Below, one piece after another: positions 3,100 through 51,669 of a stretch of 64,000 nucleotides of DNA. The translations under genes and the position numbers were made by a program. The notes below the pieces were generated by a model that worked only from the letters and a program-made list of their open reading frames with translations, was not told the origin of the DNA and searched no databases. The DNA comes from Cavia porcellus (Eukaryota; Chordata; Mammalia; Rodentia; Caviidae): the NCBI RefSeq assembly GCF_034190915.1, contig NW_026947486.1:23801001-23865000 (forward strand), given 5' to 3'. Position 1 is the stretch's first letter. Every line of letters begins with the position of its first letter.

Positions 3100-4405
3100 G
3101 GGCTGTAAATTCACTTTTGTTTTAATTTTTTACTTTAAAGAGATTAAGACAAAAGAGGACATAACAAAGCAGATCAGAACAGAACAATGCAAGCAACACA
3201 GTATTTCATCACAAGATAAAACATAATTAACAGTAACTACCATGATGTCTTTCTTTGAAATAGTTGAGCATAGCTTTATATATGATAGTATCAAATATAA
3301 CAAAATAGTATAAAACCATTCAAGAGAATGAAAGTATTACAGGGCATTCAGAACCAAATAACATAGGACCAACAATGGCTACTATATTATCTCATTTTCC
3401 ATGGAAAATTTGTTTATGCTATCACACATAATAAAATCCAATAAGATACAATATGATAGAACCAGTGGAAACAGAAGAACAAAAGTATGGTAGAACTTCA
3501 GAGTGAGATGATATTAAATCAGCACTGGCTATTATAATGTCTTGTTTTCATCAAAATAGCTGTTCATACCATCACAGATAATATATAAAATCAAACAAAC
3601 CAGGATAAAATCATTCCAATTAATGAATGCAAGCATTATAAGGATTCAGAGCAATGTAATGGGGAATCATGATTACCATAAACTCTTATGTACTCTTACC
3701 ATTTCTTACACTAGGGAGACTATATGGTATTTATACATGTGAGTTTGATTTATTTCGTTTATGAGTATGGTCTCAACTTGCATCCATTTATTTATAAATA
3801 TCTCAATGTGATCATTCTTTATAGCTGAGTAGTACTCCATTGTATAAAAATACCACAACTTTTTTATCCATTCCTCAGTTGATGGAAACATAGGTTGTTT
3901 CCAAGATCTGTCAATTACAAATTGTGCTGCTATAAACATGGGTGCACATATATCACTGTGGTATGATGTTTTCAATTCTTCTGGGAATATGCCTAGAAGT
4001 GGAATAGCTGGAACAAATGGGACTTCCAATCCCAGGTTTCTGACAAATCTCCAGACTGACCTCTACAGTGGTCGCACCAGTCTACACTCCCACCAACAGT
4101 GCAAGAGAGTTCCTTTTTCCCCACAGCCTCTCCAGCATTTGTTGTTGGTAGTTTTCTTGATTCTGGCCATTCTTTCTGGAGTGAGATGGTATCTCAGTAT
4201 TGTTTTAATTTGCATTTCTCTAATGACCAATGATGGTGAACATTTTTTCATGTATTTATTTGCCATTTGTATTCCTTCATCTGAGAAGTGTGCATCCACC
4301 TCAGATGCCCGTTATTGGATTGGATCTTTGAATTTTGGGGGTCTGATTTTTTAAAAATTCTTTATATGTTTTAGACAGAAGTCCTTTGTCTGAGAGTGTT
4401 TTAAT
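3100..4405 (-). mobile_element. 5'-truncated L1 (3' UTR and end of ORF2)
   Basis: The 3' UTR is about 3100-3705 and ORF2 codons run from 3706 up to about 4405. The minus-strand frame 3706-4029 encodes the ORF2 C terminus ([11 protein letters not shown] ... [15 protein letters not shown]), and 4063-4299 encodes the zinc-knuckle region [18 protein letters not shown] with all its Cys/His present. A frameshift separates the two. The element stops abruptly at ~4405, as in incomplete reverse transcription. The 3' UTR is nearly the same as that at 62505-63060, so both come from one L1 subfamily. Confidence 0.85.
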
Positions 4406-4605: not shown

Positions 4606-7600
4606 ATGCATAATGATCATATTCATCATAGGGAATTTATACCTGAATATGATATATCTTGATTTCTCTTTATTCCCAATTCCCTCTGCTTCTTTCAACC
4701 CTTCTTCTTCCATATTTGCAAAAGCTTCATTTTAATTTTATCCTACTTTTATTATTTTATCATTTTCATTTCTTCTTTTTCCTCTTTCCACACCTTAGTT
4801 TCTCTTTACCTTTGAACAATTTCTTACTATTTCACAATATATATATTGTATATTTGTTTTACTCTTTCAGTTTCTCACAATAGGGAGACAATGTGATATT
4901 TGCACGTGCATCCACTTTATTTCACTTAAGAGTACATTATCAAGGTGCATCCATTTGCCTAGAAATGTCACAAGTTTATTCTTCTTTATGACTGAATAGT
5001 ACTCCACTATAGAAAAATATCATTTTAATCATTTCTTGTTTGAGAGACATTTGAGTTGTTTCCAAGATTTAGCTATTATCAGGCTGGGGATACAGCTCAG
5101 TGGCACAACACATGTCTGGCAAGCATGAGGTTGTGAATTCAATTCCAGGTACTGAAAAAAAAAGATTTAGCTACTATAAACTATGCTGTTATAAACATGG
5201 GTACATATGTATCACTGTGGTATGATGTTTTTAATTCTTCTGAGAAAACATCCAGAAGGGGAATAACTGGGTCAAATGGGACCTCTAATTCTAGCTTTTT
5301 GAGGAATTTCCAAAATAGATGTACCAGTCTACACTCTCATCAGCAGTGGAAAAGAGTTCTTTTTTCCTCACAGCCCAATCAGCATTTGTTATTGGCTAAT
5401 TTTTTAACTATATCCCTTCTTTCTGGGATGAGATTGAATCTCTGTTGTTTTAATTTGCATTTTTGAGTGACTAATGATGCTGAACATTTTTCTTTTTTTC
5501 TAAAACCATTTTATTTCAAAATAAATATATTTCATAAATATATTTTATTTCATATATTTATTTGCCATTTATATTTCTTCATCTGAGAAGTGGGTATTCA
5601 CCTCAAATGCCTTTTTGGATTGGGTCTTTGAATTTGGGAGACCTGATTGTTTTCAGTTCTTTATATATTCTAAATTCCTTTGAGGTAAAATAGGCTAATT
5701 TTTTCCAATTCTGTGGGCTTTCTTTTTCACTCTGTTGGTGATTTATTTTGATGTGCAAAAACTTTTTAATAAGATGAATCCTAATTTTGATTCTTTGAAG
5801 TACTTCCATATATTTTGGTTTTTGTTCATGAACTCTCTGCCTACACATGTGTCTTCAAGATTTTTACCTCATTCCTTTTCCAAGAGATTTAGTGTTTCTG
5901 TTTTAATATTTAGATCTTTGATTCATTTTGACTTTAATGATACATCTGGGTCTAGTTTTAGTACTCAGCATGTGGAAAGCCAGTTTTTCCAGCAATATTT
6001 TTAAAAGAGGTTATGTTTCTTCTAGTGAACATGCTTGGTTCCTTTGTCAAAGATAAGGTGACTAAGTGTGCCTGTAGTTGTGTCTGTGTCTTCTAATCTG
6101 TTTCATTGATCCTAAAGTCTGCTTTTTTGACAGTGCCATGCTTATTTTGTCACAGAAATTAGAAGTATAATTTTAAGTCAGGAATTGTGATGCCTTCTGC
6201 TTTACCTGTGTTTCCCATGGTTGCCTTTGTTATTCTAGGTCAATTATGTTTCCAAATGAATTTTAGGAATGCACTCTCTACTTCTGTCAAGTATGTTAAT
6301 GGTATTTTGATTGGGATTGCATTAAATCTGTATAATAGTTTTGGTAATATGGCCATTTTCACAATATTGGTTCCTCCTATCTATGAGTAAGAGATCCCTT
6401 TACATTTTCTGATATCCTCTTTGATCTCTTTAGTCAGAGTGCTTACATTTTCAATGTAGAGATCTTTTACTTCCTTTGGTATACTGAAATACTATTTCAG
6501 CTTTTTGGATGTAATTGTGAAGGGCACTATTTTCCTAATTTCTCTCTCACTGAGTTTTTTGTTTGTGTACAGGAATGCTATCGATTTTTTAGTGCTGACT
6601 TCATATCCAGCTACGCTACTGAATTTGTTTATTAATTCTAGAAGTCTTTTGGTGGCGTTTTTGGGGTCTTTTATGTTGAGTATCATGTCATCCATGAATA
6701 ATGATAATTTAACTTCTTCCTTTCCTATCTTTATTCCTTTTATTTGTCTCTCTCATCTAATTGCTCTGGCTAATGTTTCCAGAACTATATTGAATAGGGG
6801 TGGTGATAGTGGACATCTTTGTCTTGTTCCTGACTTTAGAGTGAAAGCTTTCAGTTTTTGTCCAGTTAATATGGTGTTGGCTGTTGGTTTGTTATAAATG
6901 GCTTTTATCAGATGGAAATAAACACCATCTATTCCAATTTTCTATAGGATTTTTATCATGAATGACTGTTGGATTTATCAAAAACTTTTTATGCATCTGT
7001 TGAAATGATCATGTGATTTTTTTGTTTGGCTGTGTTGTTATGATGTATTATGTTTATTGATTAGTGTATGTTGAACCATCCCTGCATTCCTGGGATGAAT
7101 CCCACATGATCATGATATATTATCTTCTTGATGATTTTTTGTATTTTGTTTGCCAGTATTTTATTGAGGATATTTGCATCTATGTCATGAGGAAGATTGG
7201 ATGGTAGTTCTCTTTTGGTTGGGCCTTTCTCTGGTATTTGTATCAGAGTAATACTTACCTCCAAAAATGAATTAGGGAAAATTGTTTCCCTTTCAATTTT
7301 ATTAAAGAATTTGAGGAGAGTTTTCATTAAATCTTCTCTAAATATCTTATAGAATTCAACCACAAATTGATCAGGATTTGTGCTTTTATTTGTTGGTAAA
7401 GTTTTTAATTAAATTTTCAATTTCATTAACTGATACTGGGTTGTTCAAAATTTTTTATCTTTTTGATTCAGCTTTGGTAATTCACATGTTTCTAGGAATA
7501 GGGCCATTATTTCTGCATTTTCTACCCTATGCAAGTAAAGATTTTTAAGGGAGATATTGATGATCTTTTGAATTTCCACAGGATTTGTAATGATTTCACA

Positions 7601-8060
7601 TTTTTCATTCCTTATTGAATGGATTTGTTTTTTCTGTCCTTTTAAAATATGGTTGGCTAGGAGTTTATCAATTTTATGTATTCTTTTAAAGCACAAACTC
7701 TTTGATTCATTAATTTTTGTATTGTTTTCTTGGTCTCAATTGCATTAATTTCTGCTCTGTTCTTTATAATTCCTTTGCTTTTATGGACTTAGGGCTTCAC
7801 TTGCTTTTTTTCTAAAAGCTTGAGGAGCTGCATTAGGTTACTTATTTGCACTTGTTTTGTTTTTCCTCAAGTGAAAATTCATCACAATAAATTTCCTCCT
7901 TAAAATGACTTTCATTGTACCCCACAGGTGCCAGTAAGTTGTATTTGAAATTTTGTTTGAATGTAGATATTTTTTAAATTCTTTAATTTCATCTGTGACC
8001 TATTGATTGTTCAGGAGGGCATTATACAATTTCCAGGTGTTTATGAGGTTTTTGCAGTTT
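4606..8060 (-). mobile_element. Long decayed L1 (copy 1), 3' UTR and most of ORF2
   Basis: The minus-strand order is 3' UTR (4606-4900), ORF2 from the C terminus (near 5170) to the part after the endonuclease (near 8050). Recognisable pieces are the RT region (6492-6695), the helical part upstream (7061-7363, [12 protein letters not shown]) and 7445-7696. Stops and shifts occur throughout. The L1 is interrupted by an ID SINE (5079-5161) and by a half-LINE (8061-9380), and it resumes at 9381-10955. Its 3' UTR differs from the young L1 but matches that at 16985-17290, so it belongs to an older subfamily. Confidence 0.85.
5079..5161 (+). repeat. ID-type SINE inserted in L1 copy 1
   Basis: Starts aggctggggatacagctcag, has gtgaattcaattccaggtac and ends in an A run. 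It is flanked by a 15-16 bp target duplication, aagatttagctatta (5064-5078) and aaagatttagctacta (5161-5176), the hallmark of L1-driven SINE insertion. Confidence 0.85.
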
Positions 8061-9380
8061 CTTTTTTATATATTTTTTAAATTTTTAAATGAATAAAACC
8101 AAACTAAATGAGACAGAATAAAGCCAATCAGAATAGAGAAATGAAAGTGATACAGGACTTCAAAACAAAATAATAGAAAATCAACAATGGGTATCATAAT
8201 GTCTCCTGTTTTCTTCAAAATAGTTGTCTGTACCATCAGATATAACAAAGCAAATAAAACAAAACAGAATAAAACCAATCAAAACAAAACAATGAAAGTG
8301 ATACAGGACTTCAAAACCAGAAAATAGGAAATCAACCATAGCTACCATCATATAGCTTATTATCTATAGAATAGCTGCCCATACCATCAGACATTTTTAT
8401 GCTAGAGAAATAACATAATGTTCACCCATGTGAGTCTGAACCATTTTGCTCATGAGCATGATCTCAAGTTGCATCCATTTTTCTATAAGCACCTCAAAGT
8501 TATCCTTCTTTATAACTCAGTAGCTTTCCATTGTATAAAAATACCGTATCTTTCTTATCCATTCTGCAGCTGATGGGAAAGTTACTCTTGCTTTTTTCTG
8601 GTTTTCTGTCACATGGAACATTGTTTTCTCTCCTTTGACTCAGTCTATGAATTTCCTTTCAAGTTAAATATGTGTCTTATATACAGGATATTAGTGGATC
8701 TTGTTTCTTGAAACACTCTCCTTGTGTTTATATGAGCAATTCTTTCATTAAGTTTGTGACTTTTTCTTTTACCTGATATGATTATTTTTACAGCCCCATG
8801 AAGTTGTTTCTTTACTTTATTTGCTATCCTTTCAGAGATTTCAGGTGTATGTCTTCCATTTTCTTTCATGTCTATACCTCCCAAACTTGTTCTGTGTGGA
8901 CTGGAGGTTTGAGATTGCCTTTTACTCCTTCAACTTGACATTTTTCTGGTTTCCACCTAAGGAGCCAGTTTTGGAGTCCTAGGTGTTTCTCACATTGACT
9001 GCCCCTCCACAGTGTAGGGGAATGGGCCAGGCATCTCTGAACCCAGATTCTGGGTCAGACTGTGGGGCATGGCGTATCCCTCTCCAGCCCTGTACAGCTA
9101 CACCAAGGCGTCCCAGATGGCCATGGGTGCATGGTGGTGGGGCTGTTTCTTCTCTTGATCTTCATGGCTATACTAGGACTTCCCCCTATGGCGGTAGCTG
9201 CACAGGGCATGTTTGTCTGATTCTCTCAGCTTGTGCTGGCTGCCTGCAGAAAGCAAGCATTTCGAATGGTCGCCTACAGGCTCATAGAGCATCTGGCTGT
9301 TTCTTCTCACCCATGCTGTTTACTTGAGGCAAGGAAGCATCCAGATAGGGTCAGACACACAGGAATGTGTCTGGCTGTTT
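8061..9380 (-). mobile_element. Half-LINE (HAL1-like) copy A, internally deleted
   Basis: Minus-strand order: 5' UTR (9370-8960), ORF1 N-terminal part (about 8950-8720), a short endonuclease piece (about 8720-8590), then straight into the last ~60 codons of ORF2 (8580-8400) and a modular 3' UTR (8395-8070). The join near 8580-8588 is the same as in copies B (32290) and C (19650). This copy has also lost the ORF1 C-terminal domain: the frame 8645-8884 runs from ORF1 N terminus into endonuclease-like sequence. Flanks look like a worn target duplication (tttttgcagtttcttttt left, ttttcatgatttctttt right) in L1 copy 1. HAL1s are known non-autonomous L1 derivatives that keep ORF1 but not RT; the family assignment here is inference. 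Confidence 0.7.
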
Positions 9381-9769
9381 CTCATTTTCATGATTTCTTT
9401 TACCATTAATTTCCAATTTTATTGCACTACGGTCAGATCATAAGCATGGGATAACTTCAATTCTTTTGCACTTACTTAAACATGTCCCATGGACTAACAT
9501 ATAGTTTATTTTAGAGAGCATCCCATGTGTAGCTGAGCAAAATGATAACATTTCTTTTTTATCCAAGAGATTTTTTTCTGATTCAATTTCCTCTATAACT
9601 ACATGGATTTGTTTGTTTACTTTGGTTGCTATCATTTCAGAAATTTCAATTGTGTGTCTTACAATTCCTTCTATGTTGATGTCTCCTGGACTTGTTCTGG
9701 GTGAGCTGGAGGTCTGAGATTGCAATTTGCTTCTGTGTCTTGTCATTTTCCATTTCAAAATTTTAAAAT
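9381..9769 (-). pseudogene. L1 copy 1: ORF1 N terminus fused in frame to ORF2 endonuclease
   Basis: The minus-strand frame 9758-9438 (106 codons) starts like L1 ORF1 (MTRHRSKLQSQTSSSP, then a helical stretch to about residue 68) and continues in the same frame into the C-terminal part of the ORF2 endonuclease (LVHGTCLSKCKRIEVIPCL). All of the ORF1 RNA-binding and C-terminal domains, the inter-ORF gap and the endonuclease N terminus are missing, a deletion of roughly 1.4 kb compared with the L1 at 25.7-31.7 kb. It is part of a decayed element, so no function is implied. Confidence 0.75.
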
Positions 9770-10955
9770 TTTGTTTCTATGGTTCTTGTGAATTTTTGTA
9801 GTAGATAGCTATATCACTAGTGCCAACGCCTCTCTAGGAAAAGTCTATTCTTCAAGAATGTCTTCTGTGTGTAGGAGATTTTGGTTTGTGTACATTACAA
9901 GAGCCTGCCTACCCAATTAATAAATTGAGTATCTGTTTGGCTTAGTTCCCAGTCCTTTGGTGTTGGGGGAGTGTGGTGAGGTTATTACACTAAAGCTTCC
10001 AGTATTGTTACAGAAAGGAGAACAACTGATTGCAACAGATCTGACATCCTAGTTAAAGTAGTAAAATTAACAGCATCAACTGCATCAAGCACAGTTTAGA
10101 AACTGACACACTGTAGTAACTATTGATTTCATATTTTAGACCATAGGAGCAGAGTTTAAAGCTGTATAACAGAATCAACCATAAATCAGGAATTTGTATG
10201 CCATGTTTCCTCTTGGTAGAGTGATTTTAACCTGTGGCTGGGAAATTTAAGGAAGATAGTGTATAAAGCAAAGATAACTGTAAACAAAGTAGAAGCAAGG
10301 CTGGTGGACAAAGGATGATTGCACAAGATTTGGAAGACTAGAGAAGGGGGTGGAAAAGAAAGAATGAAGGAGTAGTCAAGTAATTTTTCTGAACTTGATC
10401 TCTGGACTTAGGAAATGGGATGAGTTTCACGTGGTTAGAGTTCTCCCCAGTCATTTAGAAAACTGAGAGAAAAAAGAGTGAAACAAAGAAAGAAAAAGTA
10501 GAAAACAGAAAGGAATGAAGAATAAAAAGAAAAAAATTAAAGAGAAAAAGGTCAGTACCTAATCCTGGAATCTTTCTGAGCTGGTTGATGGTCCTGCAGA
10601 GGCCTCAGTCACTTGTTGGCTCATACTCTCATTGTTAATTCAGACTTTTCACACGAGTCTCACCTGTCCATTCTGTGCACCTTAGTTAGTACTCTACTAT
10701 GTCACTGGTATTATTGCTGATGTCTGGGACTTCGCAAGCAGTTCACCTTAATAGTGGCAGTAGCAAAAGGAGGGGCCTCTCTCCTCTGGCATGGCTTGCC
10801 TGAGTTCCTGTGTTGGCAGTTCACCTGAATTCCTACAGTGGCCTAGACGTGATGGGAGGGGCCTCTTTCTGCTGATTTGGCTCACCTGGGTTCCCGCAGT
10901 GGCTAGCAGGTCACTAGCTTCATTTTCTATGGTAAAACCAGCCCCACTGCACTGT
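9770..10955 (-). mobile_element. L1 copy 1, 5' UTR with short promoter repeats
   Basis: The sequence from about 9958 aligns with the 5' UTRs of L1 copies 3 (39604 on) and 4 (46801 on): all contain a ...tgacacccta/tgacatccta... motif followed by a run of cagttagcaa-like text. A purine-rich block lies at 10450-10550. At 10756-10915 two related segments (gaggggcctctctcctctgg and gaggggcctctttctgctga) form a partial tandem repeat, the layout of monomer-type L1 promoters. The 5' end is placed near 10955. Confidence 0.6.
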
Positions 10956-16984: not shown

Positions 16985-17549
16985 ATTTTATTGGTACATT
17001 TGACAGATAGACAATGATCACATTCATCATAGGGAATTTGGGTCTATACATGATGTGTCTTGATCCTTCCTTTTTTCCCATTGCCCCTTCATCCTTTCAG
17101 CCTCTCTTCCCCTCCTTATTTAAAGGAGCTTTGTTTTCATTTTTTTCCCCTTCCTTCTTTTCTCTGTTCCCTCTCCCTTGTTCCTCTTCTTCCTACTTTA
17201 CAATATCTATTATACATTTTGTTCCTTATTTATACTTTGGTTTCTCTCACCAGAAAAAGTATTAGATATTTACACATTTGTCCAATTTATTTCACTTAAG
17301 AATATAGTCTCAAGGTGCATCCATTTATCTAGAAATGCTTCACGTTTATCCTTCATTAAGGCAGGGTAGTACAACATTGCCTAAAAAACCCACATCTTCT
17401 TTATCCATTCTTGGTTGATGGGCATTTGGGTTGTCTTCAAGATTTGGCTATTCCAAACTGCTGCTATAAATATGGGTGTGCATATATTACTATGGTATAA
17501 TGATTTCAATTCTTTTGGAAAGATACCAAGAAGGGGAATAGATGGGTTA
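16985..17549 (-). mobile_element. L1 3' part of a 5'-inverted element
   Basis: Minus-strand L1 3' UTR (16985-17290; same subfamily as 4606-4900) and the last ~85 codons of ORF2 (17290-17549). It stops near the [12 protein letters not shown] region. The adjacent upstream ORF2 piece is present in opposite orientation at 20481-20775. Together they form the inverted-5' structure produced by twin priming, now separated by a half-LINE. Confidence 0.65.
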
Positions 17550-17567
17550 AGAATTCAAAAAAGTCAG

Positions 17568-20480
17568 GAGATTCTGGGAAGATTGCAGAACAATAAGCAG
17601 CAAAGTAAAAAGCCTTTCTGAGAGAAATAACCCAGATGCTGGGATATAGCATTCAAGGAAGACCAGAAGGAAAGAAATGGATCCCCTTGACCCAGGAAGA
17701 AACCAAAGTGAAAAACAAAACAAAAAAACAAAAAAAAACAAAACAAGAAGGTGGTAGCCAGACACGCTTTCACCAGAGCCAGTCCCACTATGTGTGAAGC
17801 ACCACTGGAATCCAGAGACACCCAGTTACAGTGAAGTTGGGGATTGGCAAGCCCTAAGGCCTCAGCACAAAGACATGGTCATAGAGAGGAACAGTGGACT
17901 AGAGAACTTCACAGGATCCTGGTGAGTGTGGGGGTAGGAGATTGGCCAGATGCCATTTTGGAGTTGGGGAGGACAAGCCTGGAACCAGAACTGCAGCCGG
18001 CTTCATTCGGCCACTCCTAGCACAGAGCAGATTGGTGAAAATTGCTTGGATTGAGTCCCGACCCAGTGCACAACCCAATAGCCAAGGCTGAGATTTCCCT
18101 AAAGCTATCCCTAACCAATCCTGCCTGCGTGGCACACACTAATGTGAAGACTCACTGTGGTTAACCATCTCAGAAGGGAGGGACCAGCCTGCCCTGCCCC
18201 TGCTTGTACTCCAGTAGTCACCAGCAGATTGGGGAAAGCAGCAATTCCCAGCCAGCATGCTACAGAGTAATTTTTTTTTTTGCTACAGAGTAATTATAAC
18301 CAATACAGGAAGTGCCCAGGACCCCACTAGCCACTTGTCTGGAAGAAACCAGGAACATGACAAGAGGAAGAAACAAAAGACAGTCTCCGGCCTCCAACCC
18401 AAGCAGTACTGGCCCAGGAGAGGTAAACACAGAAGAGATTGGGAATCACACACCTGCAGTTTCTGAAGCTTAAAACAGAAATATTAATACAAGTAAAGGA
18501 AGATATAAGAAAAATAATAAGCATCTCTCAAGAAGACATAGATGGAAGAATAGAGGAGCATAGAAAAAGGAGGGAAACATTCGATAAAGAATATAATAAA
18601 AATTTAGAATGCATGAAACAGATTCAAAGAGATTACCTGGAAGTTAAAAACTCCATTGAAAGCTGGCAAAACTGCTTGATATGAACTAGAGATAGACTAT
18701 CAAACCTTGAAGACAGGTTTGCAAATTGCAATCATAAAAGGAGAGATCTATTAAAAATAACAAGAAACCAAGAAATAACAATACAAAGGCTAGAAGATGA
18801 CAAGAGGATCTAAAACTTAAGAATAAAAGATGTGATTGAAGAAGCAGGAATAAACACAAATGAAATACAAAGGATATTTACAGAAATAATTAAAGAAAAC
18901 TTCCCAAGCATAGGAAAAGGAAATGATATTTAGATGTATGAGGCATACAGAACTCCAGCCAGCTATAACCAAAATAGATCTACACCCAGACAAATAATAA
19001 TCAAGATCCCAGAAATTCAACACAAGAATAGAATATTAAAAGTTGTCAGAGAAAAGAAACAGATCACCTATAAAGGAAAACTCATCAGAATCAGGACAGA
19101 CTTCTTGACACAAACCACCAAATCAAGAAGAGCTTGGAGTAAAGTATTCTAAGCCCTGAAGGAAAATAATCTCCAACCCAGATTGATGTACCCTGAAAAA
19201 CTATCTCTCAAAATTAATGGAGAAGCATGATGCTTCCATGACAAAGAGGAACTGGGGGAGTTCATGACCACCAAACCATCCCTACAAAAAACTGAAGGAC
19301 ATTTTAGAGAGAGAGAGAAAAAAAAAACCCAGGGTTTCAGGCACAATGGCAGAGAGGCCTCAATGAATGGGGCAGACAGTGGAATGAAGGGGAAAAGTAG
19401 ACAACTAATGGCAGAAAAGTAGCATGGCAAAGATGAGGCAGAGGAAGTTGGACACAATCATCACTAACATAGATGACATCGATTCATCAATAAAAAAAAC
19501 ACAGGCAGAGTGTATCAGGAGATAGGGTCCATTAATAAGCTCTACATAAGAAATATAATTAACCTGAAAGATGGTTTATGGACTGAAAATCAAAGGTGAG
19601 AAAACAATGCTCTATGTGATAGGGAACCAGAAAAAAGTGGGGGTAGCTCACCCTTCAGTTGCAGATTGGTTGGAAAAACATAACACTTTTGTTTGGAGAA
19701 CTACTCAGGTATAAGGAAGGAAAACCTAGAGGCTCTTGTAAGTAAACTGATACAACTTTAGATCATGCTCAGGGGTAAAAAGGTTCAAAATTACTTAGAT
19801 AAATAGTGGGTTGCTTCCCTAATCTAAAAACTAAAGGAGTTTGTGGGATACAAAATGTACAATGCATCCTGTGAAAGTGAAAGGGGAGGAATTGTATAGA
19901 AAGGGAAGGCAGTGGCCATTGTTAATATTGTAGCATGATTTGAAACCTGTATTGTTTTCATTGCTCTGTTTAGTTTGGTTATATTCTGTTCCAGTTTGTC
20001 TATTTGTACTAGATTTGATGGCATGCACAGCTATTCAAAGATAGCAGGATATACTAATCATTTTTTATTTCCTCTTAACTTAATTTGAAGCCCTATATTG
20101 CTTTCACTGTCTTGTTTTGACTGATTTCATTTCAATTTGTTTTGTTTGAAACAAAATCTGAGGATATAGGCAACTACTTTGAAAACAATAAGATTCACTA
20201 TGATACCCATTCTGGTTTATCTATTAACTTCTTTTGAAGTCCTATAATGTCTCCAATGTTTTGCTTTTATTGATTTTGTTCTGTACTGTTGTATTCAATT
20301 TTATGATGCCTGATGATACGAACAATTCTATTGACGATAACAAGAGACATTATGGTAACCATTGTTGATCATCTTGTATTTTGATTTTAAGTCATGTACT
20401 ATGTCCATCCTTTTGTTTTCACTGACCTCGTTTTGTTTTGTCTCATTTGGTTTTATTCTCTTCAAAATAAATTTTAAAAA
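17568..20480 (+). mobile_element. Half-LINE (HAL1-like) copy C, near full length
   Basis: Plus-strand order: 5' UTR (17568-18356, starting gggaagattgcag), ORF1 (18357 to ~19310, broken), a start-of-ORF2/endonuclease remnant (about 19440-19650), a junction at 19645-19656, the last ~60 codons of ORF2 (about 19656-19820) and a modular 3' UTR ending with AATAAA (20465-20470) and an A-rich tail. RT and most of ORF2 are absent. Target duplications agaattcaaaaaagtcag (17550-17567) and agaattcaaaaaaaatcag (20481-20499) define the ends exactly. It sits in the inversion junction of another L1. The length (~2.9 kb) and layout fit HAL1-type elements. Confidence 0.75.
18357..19310 (+). pseudogene. L1-type ORF1 (RNA-binding protein), broken
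   Basis: ATG at 18357 begins MTRGRNKRQSP, matching the L1 ORF1 start. The frame is lost after ~38 codons; the coiled-coil region continues in another frame (18439-18684, with a helical EDIRKIISISQED stretch), and the C-terminal nucleic-acid-binding part is seen at 18934-19152 (TPRQIIIKIPEIQ, KKQITYKGKLIRI). At least two frameshifts and several stops are present. In L1s ORF1p forms trimers that coat the element's RNA. Confidence 0.7.
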
Positions 20481-20775
20481 AGAATTCAAAAAAAATCAGA
20501 GACCCCCAAATTTAAAGACCCAATCCAAAAATGGGCATGTAAAATGAGCAGACATTTCCCAGATGAAGATGTACAAATGTAAAATACATATATTAAAAAA
20601 ATGTTTAACATCACTGGTCCTTCAAGAGATGAAAATTAAAACAATGCTGAGATTCCATCTCGCTCCAGAAAGATCAGCTATTATGAAGAAATAAACCAAA
20701 AACAAATGCTGGTCGAACTTCAGGGGAAAAGAAACTTTTCTTCATTGTTGGTGGGAGTGTAGACTGGTAGAACTA
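20481..20775 (+). mobile_element. Inverted ORF2 piece of the twin-primed L1
   Basis: Plus-strand ORF2 codons corresponding to the region from [16 protein letters not shown] to RLVQPL in the L1 at 26-28 kb; they end exactly before the [12 protein letters not shown] region where the minus-strand part (16985-17549) begins. On the minus strand the layout is antisense 5' piece then sense 3' piece, as expected of twin priming. Confidence 0.65.
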
Positions 20776-21774
20776 CATGACCTCAGCTTAGGGTTAAGGC
20801 TCAGAGTTCAAGCCAGAACGTGTCTCTGTTCATGCTAAATGTCTAAGAAGGCAGTCTACTCTCAGAATTTCGACAGGTGTAGAGATCTGCTAATAGTCAG
20901 AAAATGACACAATTGTGAGTATCCAATCCTGTATAACTCAGGCTGAACCTGGCTTCTGTGTACAGGACCTGGATCTGTGATGACCAAGCCTGCCTCTCAG
21001 TGGGACTTTCCCCCTAGAGTGCTCTCGAATTGTCAGAAGTCCCCAGTGGCTGTCTTTCTGTCATCTACTCTGGGAACTTAGCAGTTTGATGCAGCCAAGG
21101 GGCTGTTCTGGGACCCAGGTTCACAATCAGCCCTTCTCTACAATGGTGTCCCCTCCAGCATTTGCTCTGCACTTATAGCTGTAGTCACATGTTCTGAGGT
21201 CACCTACCAACTCTTGACTGCATTCTGGAAAGAGTGCTACATGTTCTACTTGCTGGTTCCAAATGCAGATGATTCTTTCAGTCTTGATGCAGTTCTCCAG
21301 TTCTCCTTGAGTAAAAATGTTGTTAGCTTCACTTCACCTCCCAGGTGGTGAGTAGCCATCCACTGTCAATAGTGCTGCACCATCTCTCCTCTGAGGTGTG
21401 ATCTATTTTAATTTTGTATCAGTCCTATTTTCTTCTCCTCTGTCAATTCCCTCTTGGCTCCCAGGTAACTTGCACCCACTTTAATTCCTCTCCAAGCTAT
21501 TGTTCTCCAAACTATAGACAATTTGTCCTCAAAAAGTTGGCATGCTGGCCCTCACTGATCTACTATTTTGGGTCTCTCCAGAAGTCATTATGTGGCTTCA
21601 GGGTCTCTCAGATTGTTTTCTATTCAGCATGTGGTAAAAGTCACAGAGCAAGTGGTCTGGTCAGTTGGATACTAGCAATGTTCTCAGGATTTTGTGTTAG
21701 TGTGCTCTGAAATTTCCTGCATCTTTTGGTTATTACTTCTATTATCTGTTTAGTTATATATTTGTTAATCCTGA
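20776..21774. other. Unassigned sequence
   Basis: About 1 kb without a family that I can name. It is less AT-rich than its surroundings and may be an old L1 5' region, but I have no motif to show it. A 98-codon plus frame (21414-21710) has no recognised domain. Confidence 0.3.
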
Positions 21775-24174: not shown

Positions 24175-24825
24175 TTAAGATGAACCATACTCATAAGCGA
24201 AACAATATTAAACTCACATGTATAAATACCAAATAGTTTCCCTAGTGTAAGAAACAGTAATAATACATAAAAGTATGTGGTAATCATGAATCCCCATTAT
24301 ATTGTTTTGAAGACTTATAAGATTTTCATTCATTAATTGGAGTGGTTTTATTCTAGGTTGTTTGATTTTATTGTCTGTGATGGTATGAACAGTTATTTTG
24401 AAGAAAAAAAGACAATATAATAGCTAGTGCTGATTTAATATCATCTTGTTTTGAACTCCCATTAAGCTTTTGTTCTCCTGTCTCCATTGGTTTTATCATG
24501 TTGTATCTTATTAGATTTTATTACATGTGATAGTACAAACAAAATTTTTTATAGATAAGGAGATAATATAGAAACCATTGTTCATTTTCTGTTAGTTCTA
24601 AATGATCTGTAATATTTTAATTCTCTTGAATCGTTTTACACTGTGTTGTTATGTTTGATACCAGAGTATATGAAGGTATGCTCAAATATTTCAAGGAAAG
24701 AGACAGTATGGTAACTACTGTTATGTCGGGTTATTTTGTGGTGAAACACTATGTTGCTTAAATTGTATTCTGTTTTGATCTGTGTTGTTATGTGGTTATG
24801 TCCTCTTTTATCTTAATCTTCTTTT
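24175..24825 (+). mobile_element. 5'-truncated L1 3' UTR, plus strand
   Basis: It is the reverse complement of the L1 3' UTR seen at 3100-3780 and 62505-63120: catactcataagcgaaacaa at the start and gttatgtcctcttttatctt at the end. It begins at the last codons of ORF2 and lacks a clear A tail; it meets a minus-strand element tail-to-tail at 24825/24826. Confidence 0.75.
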
Positions 24826-25690
24826 AAAGTTTTTTTTTAGTTTTATTTAAAAGGAAAGAGGGAAAAACACAAAACAAAACAAAGCAGTGTAAGGGTAGAA
24901 GTAATACAGAACTACAAAAAAAACAGTAAGAAATCACTAGTTAATAGATTACATATTATCATCTTAGAGATAGTTGCTCAAATCACAGTATCAAAGCATA
25001 CAAAGTGGACACTCAAACAGTGAGTCTGCAAACAGTTGTGTTCAATGATCTAATCAAAATCATTAATATGGTCAGCTATTTAACACTCCTAAACACAATT
25101 GCTGTTGTATCCTTTAGAGCTCTTTTTCCCTCTCTTTTTTACAACAAAATCCATACATTTTGGGTTTTATTACACCGTAGTTCTAATTAATTTTGGGGGA
25201 GGGGAGAGAATAAAGTCCAATATGGCAAAACAAAGCTGTCAGTCAAAACCAAGGATAGACATAGCACATGATGTAAAACAGAGTACAAGGTTACCAACAA
25301 TGGTTATCAACAATGTCTCTTGTTTCCTTAAAAAGAATTGTCTATCTCATTAGATATTATAAAGTTGAACAAAACAGTAGAGAACAAGATCAATAAAACT
25401 TAAGCATTGTAAACATTACAGGACTTCCAAAGGAGACAATAGTCAAACCAGAATGGGCATCTTAGTGAATCTTATTGCCTTCAAAGTAGTTGCCTATACC
25501 CTCAAAATTGATACTATCATACAGAATGGAACAGAGTCTAATCAGTCAAAACAAGATCGTGGGAGTATTACAGGACTTCAAAACAAGTTAATAGGAAATC
25601 AAAAAAAGTTACTATTATATATCCTGCTAATTTTTAAAAAATTTCCCTTCATTAAAAAAACCATAAACTAAATAATTTTATATATCCTGC
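24826..25690 (-). mobile_element. Half-LINE/L1-type modular 3' UTR, truncated
   Basis: 25200-25640 matches the reverse complement of the 3' UTR of half-LINE copy C (20040-20470): e.g. aaaccagaatgggcatctta and gtagttgcctataccctca. 24840-25190 is an extra portion shared only with 63530-64000 and looks like further modules. ORF sequence is absent, so it is a 5'-truncated copy. Confidence 0.65.
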
Positions 25691-25740
25691 TAATTTTTTT
25701 AAATTTTTTCCCTTAATTAAAACAAACATAAGAAATAACT
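25613..25740. repeat. ~63-bp tandem duplication
   Basis: tatatatcctgctaattttt followed by an A/T stretch, ttcccttcattaaaa and taactaaataa occurs twice in a row (from about 25616 and 25679) with small differences. It lies between the half-LINE tail and the 3' end of the young L1. Confidence 0.6.
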
Positions 25741-26054
25741 AAATAATTTTTTAATGAATAAGGGAGAGATTGAGAGAAAAGAGGGCATAACAATATAACA
25801 AGACAGGTCAAAGCATGACTGTTTCACCAACCTAGTGCTTCACCACCAAATAACCCGACTTAATAGTAGTTACCATAGTGTCTGCCTTTTTCCTTGAAAT
25901 ATTTGAATAAAACTTCATATAGCTTCAAATATTTCCATATCAAGAAGCCCAGAATAAAGCCTTTCCAATTAATAAGTGAAAACTTTATAAGGCTTCAAGG
26001 CCACATAATAGGGAATCATGATTACCACATATTTTTATATATTTGAATCATTAC

Positions 26055-29000
26055 TTACATTAGGGAAACCATTCGGTATTCACAAATGCGAGATTGATTT
26101 ATTTCACTTATGAGTATGGTCTCAAGATGCGCCCATTTATTGATAAATATCTCAATGTGATCCTTCTTTATAGCTGAATAATACTCCATTGTATAGAAAT
26201 ACCACAACTTTTTTATCCATTCCTCAGTTGATGGACACTTGGGTTGTTTCCAAGATCTGGCGATTACAAATTGTGCTGCTATAAACATAGGTGCACACAC
26301 ATCACTGTGGTATGATGCGTTCAGTTCTTCTGGGAATATGCCTAGAAGAGGAATAGCTGGAATAAATGGGACTTCCAATCCCAGCTTTTTGATAAATTTC
26401 CAGACTGACCACCACAAAGGCTGCACCAGTCTAAACTCCCACGAACAGTGTAGGAGAGTACCTTTTTCCCCACAGCCTCTCCAGCATTTGTTTTTGTTGG
26501 TTTTCTTGATCCTGGCCATTCTTTCAGGAGTGAGATGGTATCTCAGTGTGGTTTTAATTTGCATTTCTCTAATGACCAATGATGATGAACATTTTTTCAT
26601 GTATTTATTTGCCATTTGCATTTCTTCATCTGAGAAGTGCGTATTCATCTCATATGCACATTTTTGGATTGGATCTTTGAATTTTGGGGGTCTGAGTTTT
26701 TTTAATTCTTTATATGTTTTAGACAACAGTCCCTTGTCTGAGAGAGAGTTCACTAAAATCTTTTCCCAGTTTGTGGGTTTTCTTTTCACTATGCTGGAGA
26801 TTTCTTTTGACATGCAGAAACTTTTTAATAAGAAGTGGTCCCAGTTATTGATTCTGGAAAGTATTTCCCATGGGGTTTGTGTCTTGTTCATGAATTCTCT
26901 ACCTACTCCTATGTCTTCAAGGTTTCTACCTAATTTGTCTTCCAATAGATTTAGTGTTTCTGTTTTAATATTCAGATCTTTGAACCATTTAGATTTTAAT
27001 TTACTACATGGTGATAGACATGGGTCTAGCTTTAGTTTTCGGCAAACAGAGAGCCAGTTTTTCCAGCACCATTTATTAAAGAGACTGTCGTTCTTCCAGT
27101 GAACCTGCTTGGCTCCTTTATCAAAGATAAGATGGTTGAGTGTGTTTGTAGTTGTGGTTGCATCTTCTAATCTATTCCATTGATCTTCGGCTCTGTTTTG
27201 ATTCCAATACCATGTTGATTTTACTACTGTTGCTTTGTAGTATAATTTCAAGTCAGGGATTGTGATGCCTCCTGCTTTGTCTTTGCTGCTTAGAATTGCC
27301 TTTGCGATTCTAGGTCTCTTCTGGTTCCAGATGAAATTTAGGAGTGATTTCTCTAGATCTATAAGGTATGTTGATGGTATTTTTATTGGGATTGCATTGA
27401 ATCTGTATAACAGCTTTGGGAGAATGGCCATTTTCACAATGTTTGTTCTTCCTATCCATGAGCAAGGGATGTCTTTCCACTTTCGGAGATCATCTTCACT
27501 TTCTTTTTTCAGTGTATTATAATTTTCACTGTATAAGTCTTTCACTTCTTTCATAAGAGTAATTCCTAAATATTTCATTTCTTTGCTTGCTAATGTGAAT
27601 AGTCCAGTTTCTCTTATTTCCCTCTCTGTGATTTTGTTGTTCGTGTATAGGAATGCTATTGATTTCTGAGTATTGATTTTGTATCCAGCCATTTTACTGA
27701 ATTTATTTATTGTAGCTAAGTGTCTTTCAATGGAGTTTAGGGGGACTTCTAAGGAGAGTATCATGTCATCTGCAAACAATGATAATTTAACTTCTTCTTT
27801 TCCTATTTTTACCCCTTTTATTTCTCTCTCTTGCCTAATTGCTCTGGCTAGTACTTCCAGTACTACATTAAATAGGAGTGGTGATAAAGGACATCCTTGT
27901 CTTGTGCCTGATTTTAAAGTAAAGGCTTTCAATTTTCGGACATTTAGTATGATACTGGCTGTTGGTTTGTCGTAGACAGCCTTTATTATATTGAGGTAAA
28001 GACCATCTATTCCAATTTTCTGTAAAGTTCTTATCATGAATAAATGTTGGACCTTATCGAAGGCTTTTTCTGCATCTATAGAAATGATCATGTGATTCTT
28101 ATTTTTGGCTTTATTGATATGGTGGATTACATTTATTGATTTACGTATGTTGAACCATCCTTGCATTCCTGGGATGAATCCCACTTGGTCATGGTGTATA
28201 ATCTTCTTGTTGATTTGCTGCATCCTATTTGCCAATATTTTATTGAGGATTTTTGCATCTGTGTTCATTAGGGAGATCGGTCTATAGTTCTATTTTTTAG
28301 TTGGGTCTTTCTCAGGTTTTGGTACTAGAGTAATATTTGCTTCCAGGAATGACTTAGGAAGGATTGCTTCCCTTTCAATTTCATTGAATAGTTTGAGGAG
28401 TGTCGGCATTAGGTCTTCTTTGTACTTCTTGTAGAATTCTGCAGTGAATCCATCTGGGCCTGGGCTCTTCTTGGTGGGTAAGGCCTTAATTACATTTTCA
28501 AGTTCATTAGCAGAGATTGGGTTATTCAACAGTTTTATATCCTCTTGATCTAGCTTTGGTACTTCATATGTTTCTAAGAATCTGTCTATTTCTTCTGTGT
28601 TATCAAACTTTTGAGAGTAGAGGTTTTCGAAATAGGTGTTGATGATCCTCTGTATTTCTATTGGGTCTGTAGTGATTTCTCCTTTTTCATTTCTTATTGC
28701 ATGAATTTGAGCTTTTTCTTCCCTTTTTTTTAATAAGGTTGGCTAGGGGCTTATCGATTTTATTTATTCTTTCAAAGAACCAACTCTTTGATTCGTTGAT
28801 TCTTTGGATTGTTTTCTTAGTCTCTATTGCATTGATTTCTGCTCTGATTTTTATAATTTCCTCTCTTCTTTTGGCTTTGGGCTTGACTTGCTCTTCTTTT
28901 TCTAGCTGTTTGAGGTGTAGCATCAAGTTATTAATTCGTATTCATTCTGTTTTCCTGATGTGGGAACTCAGTGCAATAAATTTTCCTCTGAGGACGGCTT

Positions 29001-29895
29001 TCATTGCATCCCACAAATTCTGCTAAGTTGTATCTGCATTTTCATTTTCTTGTAGGTATTGTTTAATTTCTTCTTTAATTTCTTCTGTGACCCACTGATT
29101 ACTCAAGAGTGTGTTATTGAGTTTTCATGTGTTCGCAGGATTTTTGCAGTATCTTTTATCATTAATTTCTAATTTCAGAGCACTATAATCCGATAACATG
29201 CAAGGGATGATTTCAACTCTTTTGCATTTGTTTAAATATGTTCTGTGAACTAATATATGGTCTATTTTAGAGAATGATCCATGTACTGCTGAGAAGAATG
29301 TGTATTCTGATGTTGTTGGGTGGAACATTCTGTATATGTCTATCAAATCAATTTGTTCGCAGGTGTGATTCAGTTCTGTTATTTCTTTGCTCATTTTCTG
29401 TCTGGTTGATCTGTCCCTTGGTGTCAATGGCGTATTAAGGTCTCCTGTTACAATTGTGTTACTGATAATTTGAGTTTTCATTTCTGTTAATAGTTGTTTT
29501 ATATTACTGGGTGCTCTGGAGTTTGGTGTATATATATTTAAGATAGTTATCTCTTCCTCTTGGAGTTTTCCCCTTACGAGTATGTAGTGACCTTCTTTGT
29601 TCTTTATGGTCATTGTTGGTTTAAAGTTCATGTTGTCTGCAAACAGACTGGCTACTCCTGCCTTTTTCTGGATTCCTGCTGCATGAAGTATTGTTTTCCA
29701 TCCTTTGACTTTCAGTCTGTGAGTATCCTTCTGGGTTAGATGGGTTTCCTGTAAATAGCATATGGTTGGATTTTGTTTCTTGAGCCATTCTGCTAGTCTG
29801 TTTCTTTTGATTGGTGCATTGAGACCATTTACATTAATGGTTATTACTGTTAAATGCTGGTTTATTGTTGGCATGTTATCTCTCTGCTGTTGCAT
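26055..29895 (-). pseudogene. L1 ORF2: endonuclease, reverse transcriptase, zinc knuckle
   Basis: Endonuclease at 29895-29125 shows NVNGL, QETHL and TGDLNTPL, but the catalytic SDH motif reads SDY: the His codon is TAT (29185-29187). A TGA replaces a Trp codon just after (about 29124). Further breaks: an in-frame stop near 28945, a slip in the T run near 28730, and a TAG at about 28288. The reverse transcriptase is open from 28268 to 26055 (737 codons) with [14 protein letters not shown] and the active-site FADD (27762-27776). In the C-terminal knuckle [14 protein letters not shown] the last Cys is Phe (26433-26435), while the copy at 4063-4299 keeps it. ORF2p would nick the target and prime cDNA synthesis; this copy cannot. 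Confidence 0.9.
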
Positions 29896-29914
29896 CTTTA
29901 TCTTTCTGTTCTGT

Positions 29915-30965
29915 TTAATTATCTGCTTTGCTTAGTGGTTTTTTCCTTTGTGTATCTAAACTGTCTTTCAATATTTTTTGCAGGGTTGGTTTGGTGTTCA
30001 TGAAGTTCTTCAGCTGTTCTTTGTCATGGAAGTATCGTATTTCACCATCAATTTTGAATGATAGTTTTGCAGGATACATCAGTCTAGGTTGGAAATCATT
30101 TTGCTTTAGGATCTGGAATACTTCACTCCATGCTCTTCTTGACTTTATTGTTTGTGCTGAGAAGTCTGCTGTGATTCTGATAGGTTTTCCTTTATAAGTG
30201 ATCTGTCTTTTCTCTCTGACAGCTTTTAATAATCTATTCTTGTTTTGGATTTCTGGGATGGTGATTATTGTATGTCTGGGTGTAGTTTTATTTTGGTTAT
30301 GACTATTTGGATTTCTATATGCTTCACTGCTCCTGATGTCGGTTTCTGATCTCATGCTTGGGAAATTTTCAGCTATTACTTCTCTAAATATCCTCTTGAC
30401 ATCCTTTATGTTGTCTCCTTCTTTTTCATTAATCCTTATCATTCTTATGTTATTTTTCTTTGCATCGTCTTGCAGTTGTTGAATTGTTGTTTCCTGATTC
30501 CTTGTTATTTTTAAAAGATCTTTCCTTTCCTGTTCACTAGCTGCAATCCTGTCTTCAAGGTCTGAAATTCTATCCTCACTATCATGAAGGTGGTTTTTAC
30601 AACTTTCAGTGGAGTTTTTTATTCCCTGTATATCTCTGTGCATCTGCATTATGTATTGTTTGTTTCTTATATTGCTCATCTAGGGATTCTATCTTTTTGT
30701 TTAGTTCCTCCAATTTTTTATCTGTGTTTTCTTTAGATATATGCAGAATCTCTTTCATTTCTTTTATCATTTCTTCTTTTACCTGGGAGATTATTTCGAG
30801 TTTGAATTTCTTTAAAGCTTCCTGGAATTGCTTGTTAATTTCAGTAGCTATTGTGTCCGATATTTGAGGTGAATGGCATATATTTTCTTCTATATACATT
30901 GCTCCTAGGGTTTCTTGAGATGGGCTGGAGGTTTGAGGTTGTAATTTGGTCTTTCGTTTTGTCAT
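29915..30965 (-). pseudogene. L1 ORF1 with one frameshift
   Basis: N-terminal part 30965-30606 starts MTKRKTKLQPQTSS and includes a long coiled coil. The rest (30679-29915) holds the end of the coiled coil, an RNA-recognition-like domain (NNIRMIRINEKEG, TPRHTIITIPEIQ) and the C-terminal domain (RLMYPAKLSFKIDGE). The two frames overlap at 30606-30679, so a single shift there breaks an otherwise full-length ~350-codon gene. It is followed by ORF2 after about 20 bp, as usual for L1. Confidence 0.85.
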
Positions 30966-31139
30966 TTTCCTATATTTCTGTGTTTCAAGTGTTATTTGAA
31001 AGCTTCCTCAGGATCTGTTGGAAATCCCCTTCTATGTCTGCAGCTACTGAGACTCTGGCACCATGCTACCCCAAGCCACTGGGCCTGCAGAACCAATGGC
31101 CCTCCTCTGCCTGTTCAGAACTCTGCAGTTCCAGATAAG

Positions 31140-31740
31140 CTGGGCCTCACGGACACTGTGCGCCCACCTGCCCGTTGGAAGCTCCACAGCTCTCCAATCG
31201 CAGCCGGGATGTGGAGGTGGATGTAGATGCCTCAAACTTACCTCTCCACTTCACTGCACCAGGATGCCTGGAGGGACGCGAACAGTCTGAGCTTTGGGCA
31301 GAGTACGCTGAGCACTCACCACAGGCTGTAGTGCCTCTGGAACCTGTGATGCTCCACTGCCTGCTGAGACATCCACAGTCCTCCAGACACACGGGGAGGG
31401 TGATGCAGGTGCCCCAGATCTGCCCAGCCCCTCCTCTGCACACCTATGGCTAGGTGTGGGAGTCCCAAACAGGCAAGGCTCCGGGGATAGCGTGGGCCCG
31501 CCTACCCGCTGGAAGCTCTGCAGTTCTCCAAGTGCAACCGGGATGGGGAGGCGGATGTAGAGGCCTCAAACCCACTTCTCCACTTCACTGCACCCGGAAG
31601 CCTGGAGGGTCCTGAACAGTCTGGGATTTGGGCAGAGTGCACTGAGCACTCACCACAGGCCGCAGTGCCTCTGGAACCTGCGATCCTTCCCAGCTTGCTG
31701 AGATATCCACAGTCCTCTAGACACATAGGGAGGCTGATGC
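31140..31740 (-). promoter_or_regulatory. L1 copy 2: ~334-bp 5' UTR monomers
   Basis: GC-rich tandem repeat: gcccacctgcccgttggaag (31162) and gcccgcctacccgctggaag (31496) are 334 bp apart, and gcctggaggg, gagcactcaccacagg and ccacagtcctc recur at the same spacing. The outer copy is cut at ~31740. Tandem monomers serve as the promoter in several rodent L1 lineages. Confidence 0.75.
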
Positions 31741-32345
31741 CTCTTTTAAAGTTTTTTAAAATAAAAAAGCCTCAAAAACTCCAGAATACAGTAAAACCAA
31801 TAAAAACAAAACAATGAAAGTGATATAGGAATTCACAACAAGACAATAGAAAAATCAACAATGGCTACCATATTATATCTTGATATCTTCAAAATAGCTC
31901 CCCATGTAGTCAGACAAAGCAGACTCTAACAAAAGAGAACAGAATAAAACCAAATGAAACAAAACAATGAAAATGATACAAAACTTCAAAACATGGGTAA
32001 CAGGAAAAAAACAATGACTACTACCTTCCCTTTTTAGACATTTTCTCCCCTTTCACATTCACAATATCCATTGCACATTTTGGATACCACTAAGTCCTTC
32101 AGATTGTTATACTAGGGAAACAACACGGTGTTCACCCATGTGAGTCAAAACCATTTCACTCATGAACATGATCTCAAGTCATAGTCATTTACCTACAAGA
32201 GCTTCGAGGTTATCCTTCTTTATAGATGAGTAGCTTTCCATTGTGTAAAAATACCGTATCTTTCCTATCCATTCCACCATTAATGGGCAAGTTATTCATT
32301 ATTTTTTCTGGGTGTTCATCACATGGAGCATTGTGTTTCTGAACA
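31741..32345 (-). mobile_element. Half-LINE (HAL1-like) copy B, 5'-truncated
   Basis: 3' UTR modules (31745-32040), last ~60 codons of ORF2 (32100-32285), then the diagnostic join at 32286-32298 into endonuclease sequence (ttttttctgggtgttcatca, up to ~32340). The junction is the same as in copies A and C. The element ends at ~32345 where the tail of L1 copy 3 begins. Confidence 0.65.
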
Positions 32346-34170
32346 TAACAATAGGTAACACGGTGCCTATTGTTACTTTAAAGCAGCTACTAAGAGAATA
32401 AGATATGTGCATAACAATTGTTCAAACAGTATTAGCACAAATCTCTCTTTTCAATGAATTAAATGAAACAAATAGTGTAGCTATGTTGCATTTTTTCCTT
32501 TTCCCTTCCTGCCTTTCCCCTTTTCCCTGCTCTAGTTTCTCCTTCCTTTGGAGCAATTTCTTTCTGTTTAACAATGTCTAACTAACATTTTGGAACTTAC
32601 TTACTCTTTCACTTACTCACTCACTTAACTCTTACACTTTCACGCCAGGGAGACAATAGAATATTTATATGCATGAGTCTGATTTATTTCATTTATGAAT
32701 ATGGACTCAAGTTGCATTCATTTACCTATAAAAATCACTTTTATTCTTGTTAATGGCTGAGAAATACTGTATTGTATCAAAGGACCACATATCCACATCC
32801 TTTTTATCCATTCCTCAGTTGACAGACATTTGGGTTATTTCCAAGATTTGGTTATTAAAATTTATGATGCTATAAACATGAGAACACATATATTACTGCA
32901 TTATGATGTTTTAAATTCTTTTAGGAAGATACTCAGAAGGGGAATAGCAGAGCTGAATAGGATGTGTAATGCTAGTTTTTTGAGGAAGCTCTATACTGAT
33001 TTCCACATGGTTTCGCCTGTCTACATTCCCATCAACAGTGGAAAAGGGCTCCTTTTTCACCACAGCCTTGACAGCATTTGTTGGTTGATTTCTTGATGGT
33101 AGCCCTTCTTTCTGGAATGAGAATGAATATCAATATTATTTTAATTTTTATCTCTTGAATGACCAATGACATTGAACATTTTTTCTATATTTATTTGTCT
33201 TTAATTTCTTCATTAGAGAAGTACGTATTCATCTCAGATGACCATTTTTGGATTGGGTCTTTAAATTTGGGGAGTTTCATTTTCTTCAGTTCTTTATATG
33301 TCCTAGATATAAGCTCTTTGAGGGACAGCTGAGTAAAAGTTTTCCCATTCTATGGGTTATGTTTTTAATCTGTTGATGATTTCTTTTCTTGTACAGAAAC
33401 ATTTTAATAAGATGAGATCCCATTTGTTGATTCAGACTGTGTTTTCAATGCAGTCCAAGTTTTGTTCATGAATTTTCCACCTACCCCTATATGTTCAAGA
33501 TTTATAGCTATTTCTCTTTCAGTAGAGTTAGTGTTTGTGTTTTAATATTTAGATCTTTGAGATACATGTAGATGTTAGTTTAGTGCCTGGTGATAGACAT
33601 AGGTATAGTTTTTAGTCTTCAGCCTGTGGAAAGCCAGTTTTCTCAGCACCATTTGTTACAGAAGCTGTCTTTCTTCCAGTCTTTTGGTCAGCCTCTTTAC
33701 CAAAAAATCAGGTGGCTGAGTGGATTTGGAGTTGTGTTCGCATCTTCTAGTGTGTATCACTGATTATCAGTAATGTTACTGAATATCATGATTTTTTTAT
33801 GATCACAGTAGCTATGTAGTATAATTTCCCTTTACAGATTGTAATGCCCCCAACCTTGCCTTTGTTACCCAGAATTGCTCTGGTTATTCTAAGTTTCTTC
33901 CATTCCCAAATGACCCATGGAAATGTTTTCTCTAGTTTTTTGAGGTATGCTTATGGAATTTTTATTGGGATTGCATTAAATATCTATAAAAATTTTGAGA
34001 ATATGGTCATTTTCATTATATTCATTCTTCCTTCCCATGAATATAGAATGTCTTTCCATTTTCTGAAATCCTATTTCATTTCTTTTTTTCACTGTAATGT
34101 AATTTTCAATGTATTTCAATTTTACATTCTTTGTTAGATTGATTCTTGAGTATTTCATTTATTTGGATGC

Positions 34171-39602: not shown

Positions 39603-39607
39603 GTTGC

Positions 39608-49942: not shown

Positions 49943-49947
49943 GTCAC

Positions 49948-51317: not shown

Positions 51318-51322
51318 CATGG

Positions 51323-51664: not shown

Positions 51665-51669
51665 CATGG

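What the first reader, a model, noticed from the sequence alone, without database searches (positions are those of the whole stretch)
8560..8620. Three half-LINE copies share one endonuclease/ORF2-tail junction: a replicating deletion derivative
At 8578-8590 (minus), 32286-32298 (minus) and 19645-19656 (plus), the last ~60 codons of L1 ORF2 are joined to the early endonuclease at the same place with the same spacing: a gatggg-like ORF2-tail end, a short gttactc-like bridge, then ttttttctggtt of the endonuclease. Independent deletions would not give one breakpoint three times. The simplest reading is a HAL1-like family (ORF1 plus a stub of ORF2) that amplified after a founding deletion and kept the L1 3' UTR for recognition by L1 protein. 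HAL1-type elements are known; whether this rodent lineage with a retained ORF2 tail is described I cannot tell.
Basis: partly seen in the sequence, partly recalled or inferred. Interest (0 to 1): 0.75.

Follow-up and report, generated by a model that had tools for sequence, protein, structure and literature searches.

The report
Old half-LINE (HAL1) family, guinea pig
Three damaged mobile-DNA copies in a guinea pig chromosome share one inherited deletion because they belong to a large half-LINE (HAL1) family that kept the first LINE-1 gene, lost most of the second and was still copied around the genome, a kind of element already known in this animal.

Summary
Copies A, B (minus) and C (plus) join early L1 endonuclease (human ORF2p residue 75) to the last ~60 codons of ORF2 (human residue 1213) at one codon; the window's L1s are contiguous at both sites. 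A, B and C share 11 private columns in the tail; no other triple of ten tails exceeds 2. In the host genome, junction-spanning probes from C and from A each gave 39 further places at 88-93% identity, the scoring cap. All 20 C-type regions fetched keep the junction. Majority ORF1 is open while the ORF2 stub carries shared damage. This is a HAL1: an L1-derived, ORF1-only element that presumably borrows L1 ORF2p. The host is guinea pig, where HAL1-1 and HAL1-3 families are in print (PMC3183009, PMC3627910, passages). Younger guinea pig HAL1s (five loci 99.5-99.8% alike, intact ORF1) lack even the stub and end in a composite 3'UTR also found on an L1 of the window. No Repbase consensus could be compared.

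The parts
17563..20478 (+). Copy C: near full-length HAL1 copy, about 2.9 kb: 5'UTR, decayed ORF1, endonuclease stub, ORF2 tail, 3'UTR with four repeat units, A-rich end
   Evidence: ORF1-to-junction match to L1; nine of 20 fetched relatives align from its first 15 bases to beyond its base 2900
17549..17562 (+). Target duplication of C, first copy (AAGAATTCAAAAAA)
   Evidence: perfect 14 bases
20479..20492 (+). Target duplication of C, second copy
19645..19656 (+). Junction of C: endonuclease residue 75 joined to ORF2-tail residue 1213 (human numbers)
8084..9395 (-). Copy A: 1.3 kb HAL1 copy nested in an older L1; ORF1 missing (L1 match jumps at 8725/8729)
   Evidence: loss of ORF1 private to A
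8578..8590 (-). Junction of A
31757..32345 (-). Copy B: HAL1 copy 5'-truncated inside the endonuclease stub (5' end approximate); a younger L1 begins at its A-rich 3' end
32286..32298 (-). Junction of B
24845..31756 (-). Younger L1 next to B, used as the L1 reference: ORF1, EN and RT recognised, composite 3'UTR; matching AACTTTAAAAGA at both ends

Best explanation
A, B and C are old insertions of one HAL1 lineage of the guinea pig. An L1 once lost the ORF2 codons between human-numbered residues 75 and 1213 (shown: one codon junction plus private substitutions). Its RNA still encoded ORF1p and ended in an L1-type 3'UTR with an A-rich tail (shown), so L1 ORF2p acting in trans could copy it by target-primed reverse transcription (inferred from A tails, target duplications and 5' truncation). 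ORF1 stayed open in the source while the leftover ORF2 pieces decayed as passengers (shown for the C-type set by majority of 15 copies). The family reached at least 80 scored junction copies in two subtypes and probably far more (inferred from first-look candidate numbers). Younger guinea pig HAL1s have no stub at all.
For: Same codon junction in A, B, C. 11 private columns against at most 2. C probe: itself and 39 places at 88-91% of 40 scored; A probe: itself and 39 places at 88-93%, plus one 35-base piece. 20 of 20 fetched C-type regions keep the junction, 9 of 20 near full length. Target duplications: C, L017 and L028 beat all 90 mismatched pairs. Flanks unrelated except for dispersed-repeat pieces (5 cross hits of 75-77% among 20 flank pieces). 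Majority of 15 copies: ORF1 free of stops over P0010 1-83 and 87-347. HAL1 ORF1 copies form a group apart from L1 ORF1 (98). A-type relatives: ORF1 found in 6 of 7. HAL1 described as ORF1-only with poly(A) and target duplications (PMC5322556, passages).
Against: In the restricted duplication test 5 of 10 loci (8-9) do not exceed the 95% point of mismatched pairs (9) and 2 (10) only tie the maximum. B's own duplication was not found. In the wider tree the HAL branch has only 75 and A and B do not pair. C-type majority ORF1 lies in two neighbouring frames, with one frame change that may be alignment noise. L040, an A-type relative, shows no ORF1. Dependence on L1 ORF2p is not tested. Young HAL1s have a different, larger deletion, so the window family is not simply their unchanged ancestor.
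Confidence: 0.92

Rival explanations
1. Three independent internal deletions of ordinary L1s at a hotspot, by splicing or by template switching.
For: Recurrent identical L1 deletions made by splicing and reinserted are known (SpIREs, PMC5860796, abstract and passages).
Against: Shared private substitutions; the deleted stretch begins AG or AT and ends AAG or AAA in the window's L1s, so it does not start with GT (read); dozens of dispersed copies with the same codon join.
Confidence: 0.03
2. The junction spread by segmental duplication of one locus rather than by retrotransposition.
For: All three copies lie within 24 kb of one window.
Against: Copies differ in strand, 5' end and flanks; C has a perfect 14-base duplication; 39 further places on many contigs; flanks do not match beyond dispersed repeats.
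Confidence: 0.01
3. The fused ORF2 stub (75 + 60 residues) was itself a selected small protein.
For: The join is in frame in A, B and C, and the majority of 8 A-type rows is open for 110 codons across it.
Against: Stops precede those 110 codons, and a two-base loss relative to L1 lies upstream in both subtypes (my reading). C-type copies share stops (14 of 18 printed translations at one codon) and a base missing just after the junction (20 of 20). RT and most of the endonuclease are gone. A search with the fused peptide of A had no candidate.
Confidence: 0.04

Closest known systems
HAL1 (half-L1) elements; guinea pig HAL1-1 and HAL1-3 families (names from PMC3183009, passages; primary source Bao and Jurka 2010, Gene 465:9-16, not held and not read)
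   Same: L1-derived, ORF1 kept, ORF2 function lost, A-rich tail, target duplications, many copies, same species
   Different: Window copies keep an endonuclease stub and an ORF2 tail. Whether a catalogued guinea pig HAL1 has this junction could not be tested. The young HAL1 copies seen here lack it.
SpIREs (spliced integrated retrotransposed elements) of human L1
   Same: Internally deleted L1s that were reinserted with one and the same join in many copies
   Different: SpIREs come from splicing in the 5'UTR/ORF1 and are mostly dead ends (PMC5860796, abstract and passages). Here an ORF2 deletion without a GT start was inherited by a lineage that kept ORF1.
Ordinary 5'-truncated or deleted L1 copies
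   Same: Same sequence source; B is 5'-truncated and A has lost ORF1
   Different: The junction and private substitutions are shared by a family

Membership tests
HAL1 | Derived from L1 and carrying ORF1 | tested here: met
   C matches L1 from before ORF1 to the junction; 14 fetched loci plus C give an open majority ORF1 related to P0010; A itself lacks ORF1 but 6 of 7 A-type relatives have it
HAL1 | No working ORF2 | tested here: met
   About 1,137 of 1,275 human-numbered residues missing, including RT; stub with shared damage
HAL1 | A-rich tail and target duplications | tested here: met
   C, L017, L028 clear; L012 and L024 tie the control maximum; five others not separable; A approximate; B not found
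HAL1 | Amplified as a family | tested here: met
   39 further places for each of two junction probes, at the scoring cap
HAL1 | Moved by L1 ORF2p in trans | not testable with these tools
   inferred
Named guinea pig HAL1 families (HAL1-1, HAL1-3) | Match to the Repbase consensus | not testable with these tools
   Repbase and Dfam not on hand; primary paper not held
SpIRE | Deletion bounded by splice donor and acceptor | tested here: not met
   No GT at the start of the deleted stretch in the window's two L1s that span it (read)

The most novel reading that the evidence does not exclude
The guinea pig HAL1 ORF1 lineage is a long-lived parasite of L1 that passed through a stub-bearing stage (the window copies) and later exchanged its 3' end for the 3'UTR of the L1 of the day, so that HAL1 and L1 keep matching 3' ends by recombination or template switching. 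ORF1 of young HAL1s groups with old HAL1s (98), while their 3'UTR is the composite seen on the window's L1, including a last ~340 bases that copy C lacks.
Probability: 0.3. Interest if true: 0.5.

Novelty: already known. Interest (0 to 1): 0.22.

Why it matters
It shows from raw sequence that an L1 that lost nearly all of ORF2 can found a large family if it keeps ORF1 and an L1 3' end, which bears on why ORF1p seems to be needed in cis while ORF2p can come in trans. Guinea pig, with many nearly identical HAL1 copies and intact ORF1, is a good place to test that. The window copies themselves are old fossils of a known kind.

Tried and rejected
Small fused ORF2 protein: searched with the fused peptide of A (no candidate) and set aside after shared damage was seen. 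Splicing: no GT start. Segmental duplication: set aside. I first took 25640-24845 for a separate element; young HAL1s show the same composite 3'UTR, and the A-rich end and matching bases place the L1's 3' end near 24845. Pfam was first asked with a wrong frame and then with right coordinates. A plan of random genome samples was drawn up but none was fetched, because answered in the same turn. A probe from the L1 tail and 3'UTR did not complete. The B junction probe did not complete and not asked again. Paper searches.

Full report
Observation. Reading the three places on the L1 sense strand and aligning them with the window's L1 copies gives one junction at one codon: endonuclease QKK..V(A/T) joined to (C/F/H)P(S/L) of the ORF2 tail. 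Ungapped alignment of the window's L1 to human ORF2p chains puts it at human residue 75 joined to residue 1213 (residues counted along those alignments), so about 1,137 residues are missing. Of 11 ORF2-tail matches in the window, 3 carry the junction, 6 have normal ORF2 upstream, 1 is truncated and 1 is a fragment.

One founder, not three deletions. In a 216-column alignment of ten tails, 11 columns are shared by A, B and C and by no other row; the next best of 120 triples has 2. The A/B/C split has ultrafast bootstrap 100 there. In a wider tree with 20 more copies, in which the L1 rows have the tail only, the HAL branch has 75 and the branch of C plus the 20 loci 73.

Separate insertions. C (17563-20478) has a perfect 14-base duplication. 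A interrupts an older L1 that resumes on the far side, with a diverged duplication. B is 5'-truncated in the stub, and a younger L1 begins at its A-rich end; I did not find B's own duplication.

Genome. The host assembly has 3.145 Gb in 584 contigs and the window is C3:23801001-23865000. Contig C2 has 158,269,776 bases, the contig length given for P0010, which its source names Cavia porcellus; the host is therefore taken as guinea pig. The 121-base probe over C's junction had 1,597 first-look candidates; 40 were scored and 40 matched, itself and 39 at 88-91%. The probe over A's junction had 3,564 candidates; 40 places, itself and 39 at 88-93%, and one extra 35-base piece. These are capped lists, and first-look candidates need not all be junction copies.

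Copies. I fetched the 20 best-ranked of the 39 further C-type places. All 20 keep the junction; pairwise identity over the junction region is 85.4-93.1%, median 88.9%, 190 pairs. Six align to C in one piece from its first 15 bases to beyond base 2,900 (L009, L012, L017, L019, L020, L023) and three more do so in pieces (L024, L026, L028): 9 of 20. Duplication test on these 9 plus C: C, L017 and L028 score 14; L012 and L024 score 10; L009, L019, L020, L023 and L026 score 8-9; the 90 mismatched pairs reach 9 at the 95% point and 10 at most. An earlier, wider search with 13 loci put L012, L017, L018, L028 and C above the 95% point of their own shuffles, L024 at it and seven below it. Flank pieces of the ten gave 5 cross hits of 75-77%, as dispersed repeats would.

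What was kept. For 14 of the 20 loci (those whose longest piece spans ORF1 to tail) plus C, the majority sequence aligns to P0010 residues 1-83 and 87-347 without a stop, in two neighbouring frames; downstream no open stretch exceeds 70 codons. Copies differ from that majority by 6.7-13.7%. In the stub, 14 of the 18 printed translations have a stop at the same codon (two loci were not printed, because their QKK motif differs), and a base is missing just after the junction in 20 of 20 and in C. The A-type majority of 8 rows (A included) is open for 110 codons across the junction, with stops before it. A-type pairs are 64-87% alike, median 80%, and B is 70-80% like A-type rows. tblastn finds ORF1 in 6 of 7 A-type relatives, not in L040. 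In five (L036, L037, L038, L039, L042) the two sides of A's gap lie 954-1,137 bases apart, so the loss of ORF1 in A is private to A among those seen.

Later HAL1. P0010 as a query gave 116 scored matches, listed at 99-100% identity over all 350 residues with no stop inside (144,411 first-look candidates, which will include L1 ORF1). The five returned loci are 99.5-99.8% identical over about 3.1 kb, have intact ORF1, end in poly(A) and show no match to L1 EN or RT proteins at E up to 1. Duplications of 13-16 bases in four exceed all 20 mismatched pairs (maximum 10); L030 has 9. They pass from just after ORF1 straight into the 3'UTR, so their deletion is larger than that of the window copies. 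Their 3'UTR matches the L1 at 3105-3683 (70.6% over 446), then the window's younger L1 (69.1% over 220 and 71.0% over 792); its middle part matches C equally well (71.9% over 445), but C lacks the last ~340 bases. Their ORF1 groups with old HAL1s and apart from L1 ORF1 (98). Exchange of the 3' end, or a separate origin from a close L1, are both open.

Known work (all read as passages). PMC5753468: HAL1 encodes only ORF1p and arose independently several times. PMC5322556: HAL1s have ORF1, poly(A) and target duplications. PMC3183009: its table lists HAL1-1H (106), HAL1-3D (54), HAL1-1G (50) and HAL1-1E (37) of guinea pig, as I read it copies under 1% from consensus. PMC3627910: citing Bao and Jurka 2010, ORF1 coding capacity of guinea pig HAL1 was kept for about 29 to 44 million years. 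The primary paper is not held. My searches and the passages I read showed no text on an ORF2 stub in HAL1; they cover open-licence papers only, so this is no proof that it is not in print.

Verdict. The finding is correct and its reading sound: a fossil subfamily of a known kind of element, in a species where that kind is described.

Noticed in passing
window 24845-31756 (minus): A younger L1 with EN, RT and ORF1 recognisable but frameshifted (ORF1 and ORF2 each split over frames), inserted at the A-rich end of copy B; its 3'UTR is a composite of two L1-type ends with A-rich sequence between, as a 3' transduction might leave (inference).
   Followed up: partly
window 5162-9785 (minus): The older L1 that hosts copy A also lacks ORF1 and the first part of the endonuclease: its L1 match jumps at 9544/9546, near but not at the breakpoints of A's own loss.
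   Followed up: no
window 3149-3687, 8098-8394, 19906-20451, 24276-24791, 25219-25649, 31772-32059, 62544-63077: The L1 and HAL1 3'UTRs contain tandem units of about 150 bases in differing number.
   Followed up: partly
window 17144-17550 and 20479-20791: Copy C sits at or beside the joint of two L1 pieces in opposite orientation, as after twin priming of the host L1.
   Followed up: no
window 34167-34507, 36060-36411, 38182-38527, 39255-39604, 49597-49945, 51319-51668: Six copies of an unidentified dispersed repeat of about 350 bases.
   Followed up: no
L030-L034 (genome loci): Stubless HAL1 copies 99.5-99.8% alike with intact ORF1; two protein records named as Cavia porcellus genes (P0009, P0010) consist largely of HAL1 ORF1, so gene models seem to have absorbed it.
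   Followed up: partly
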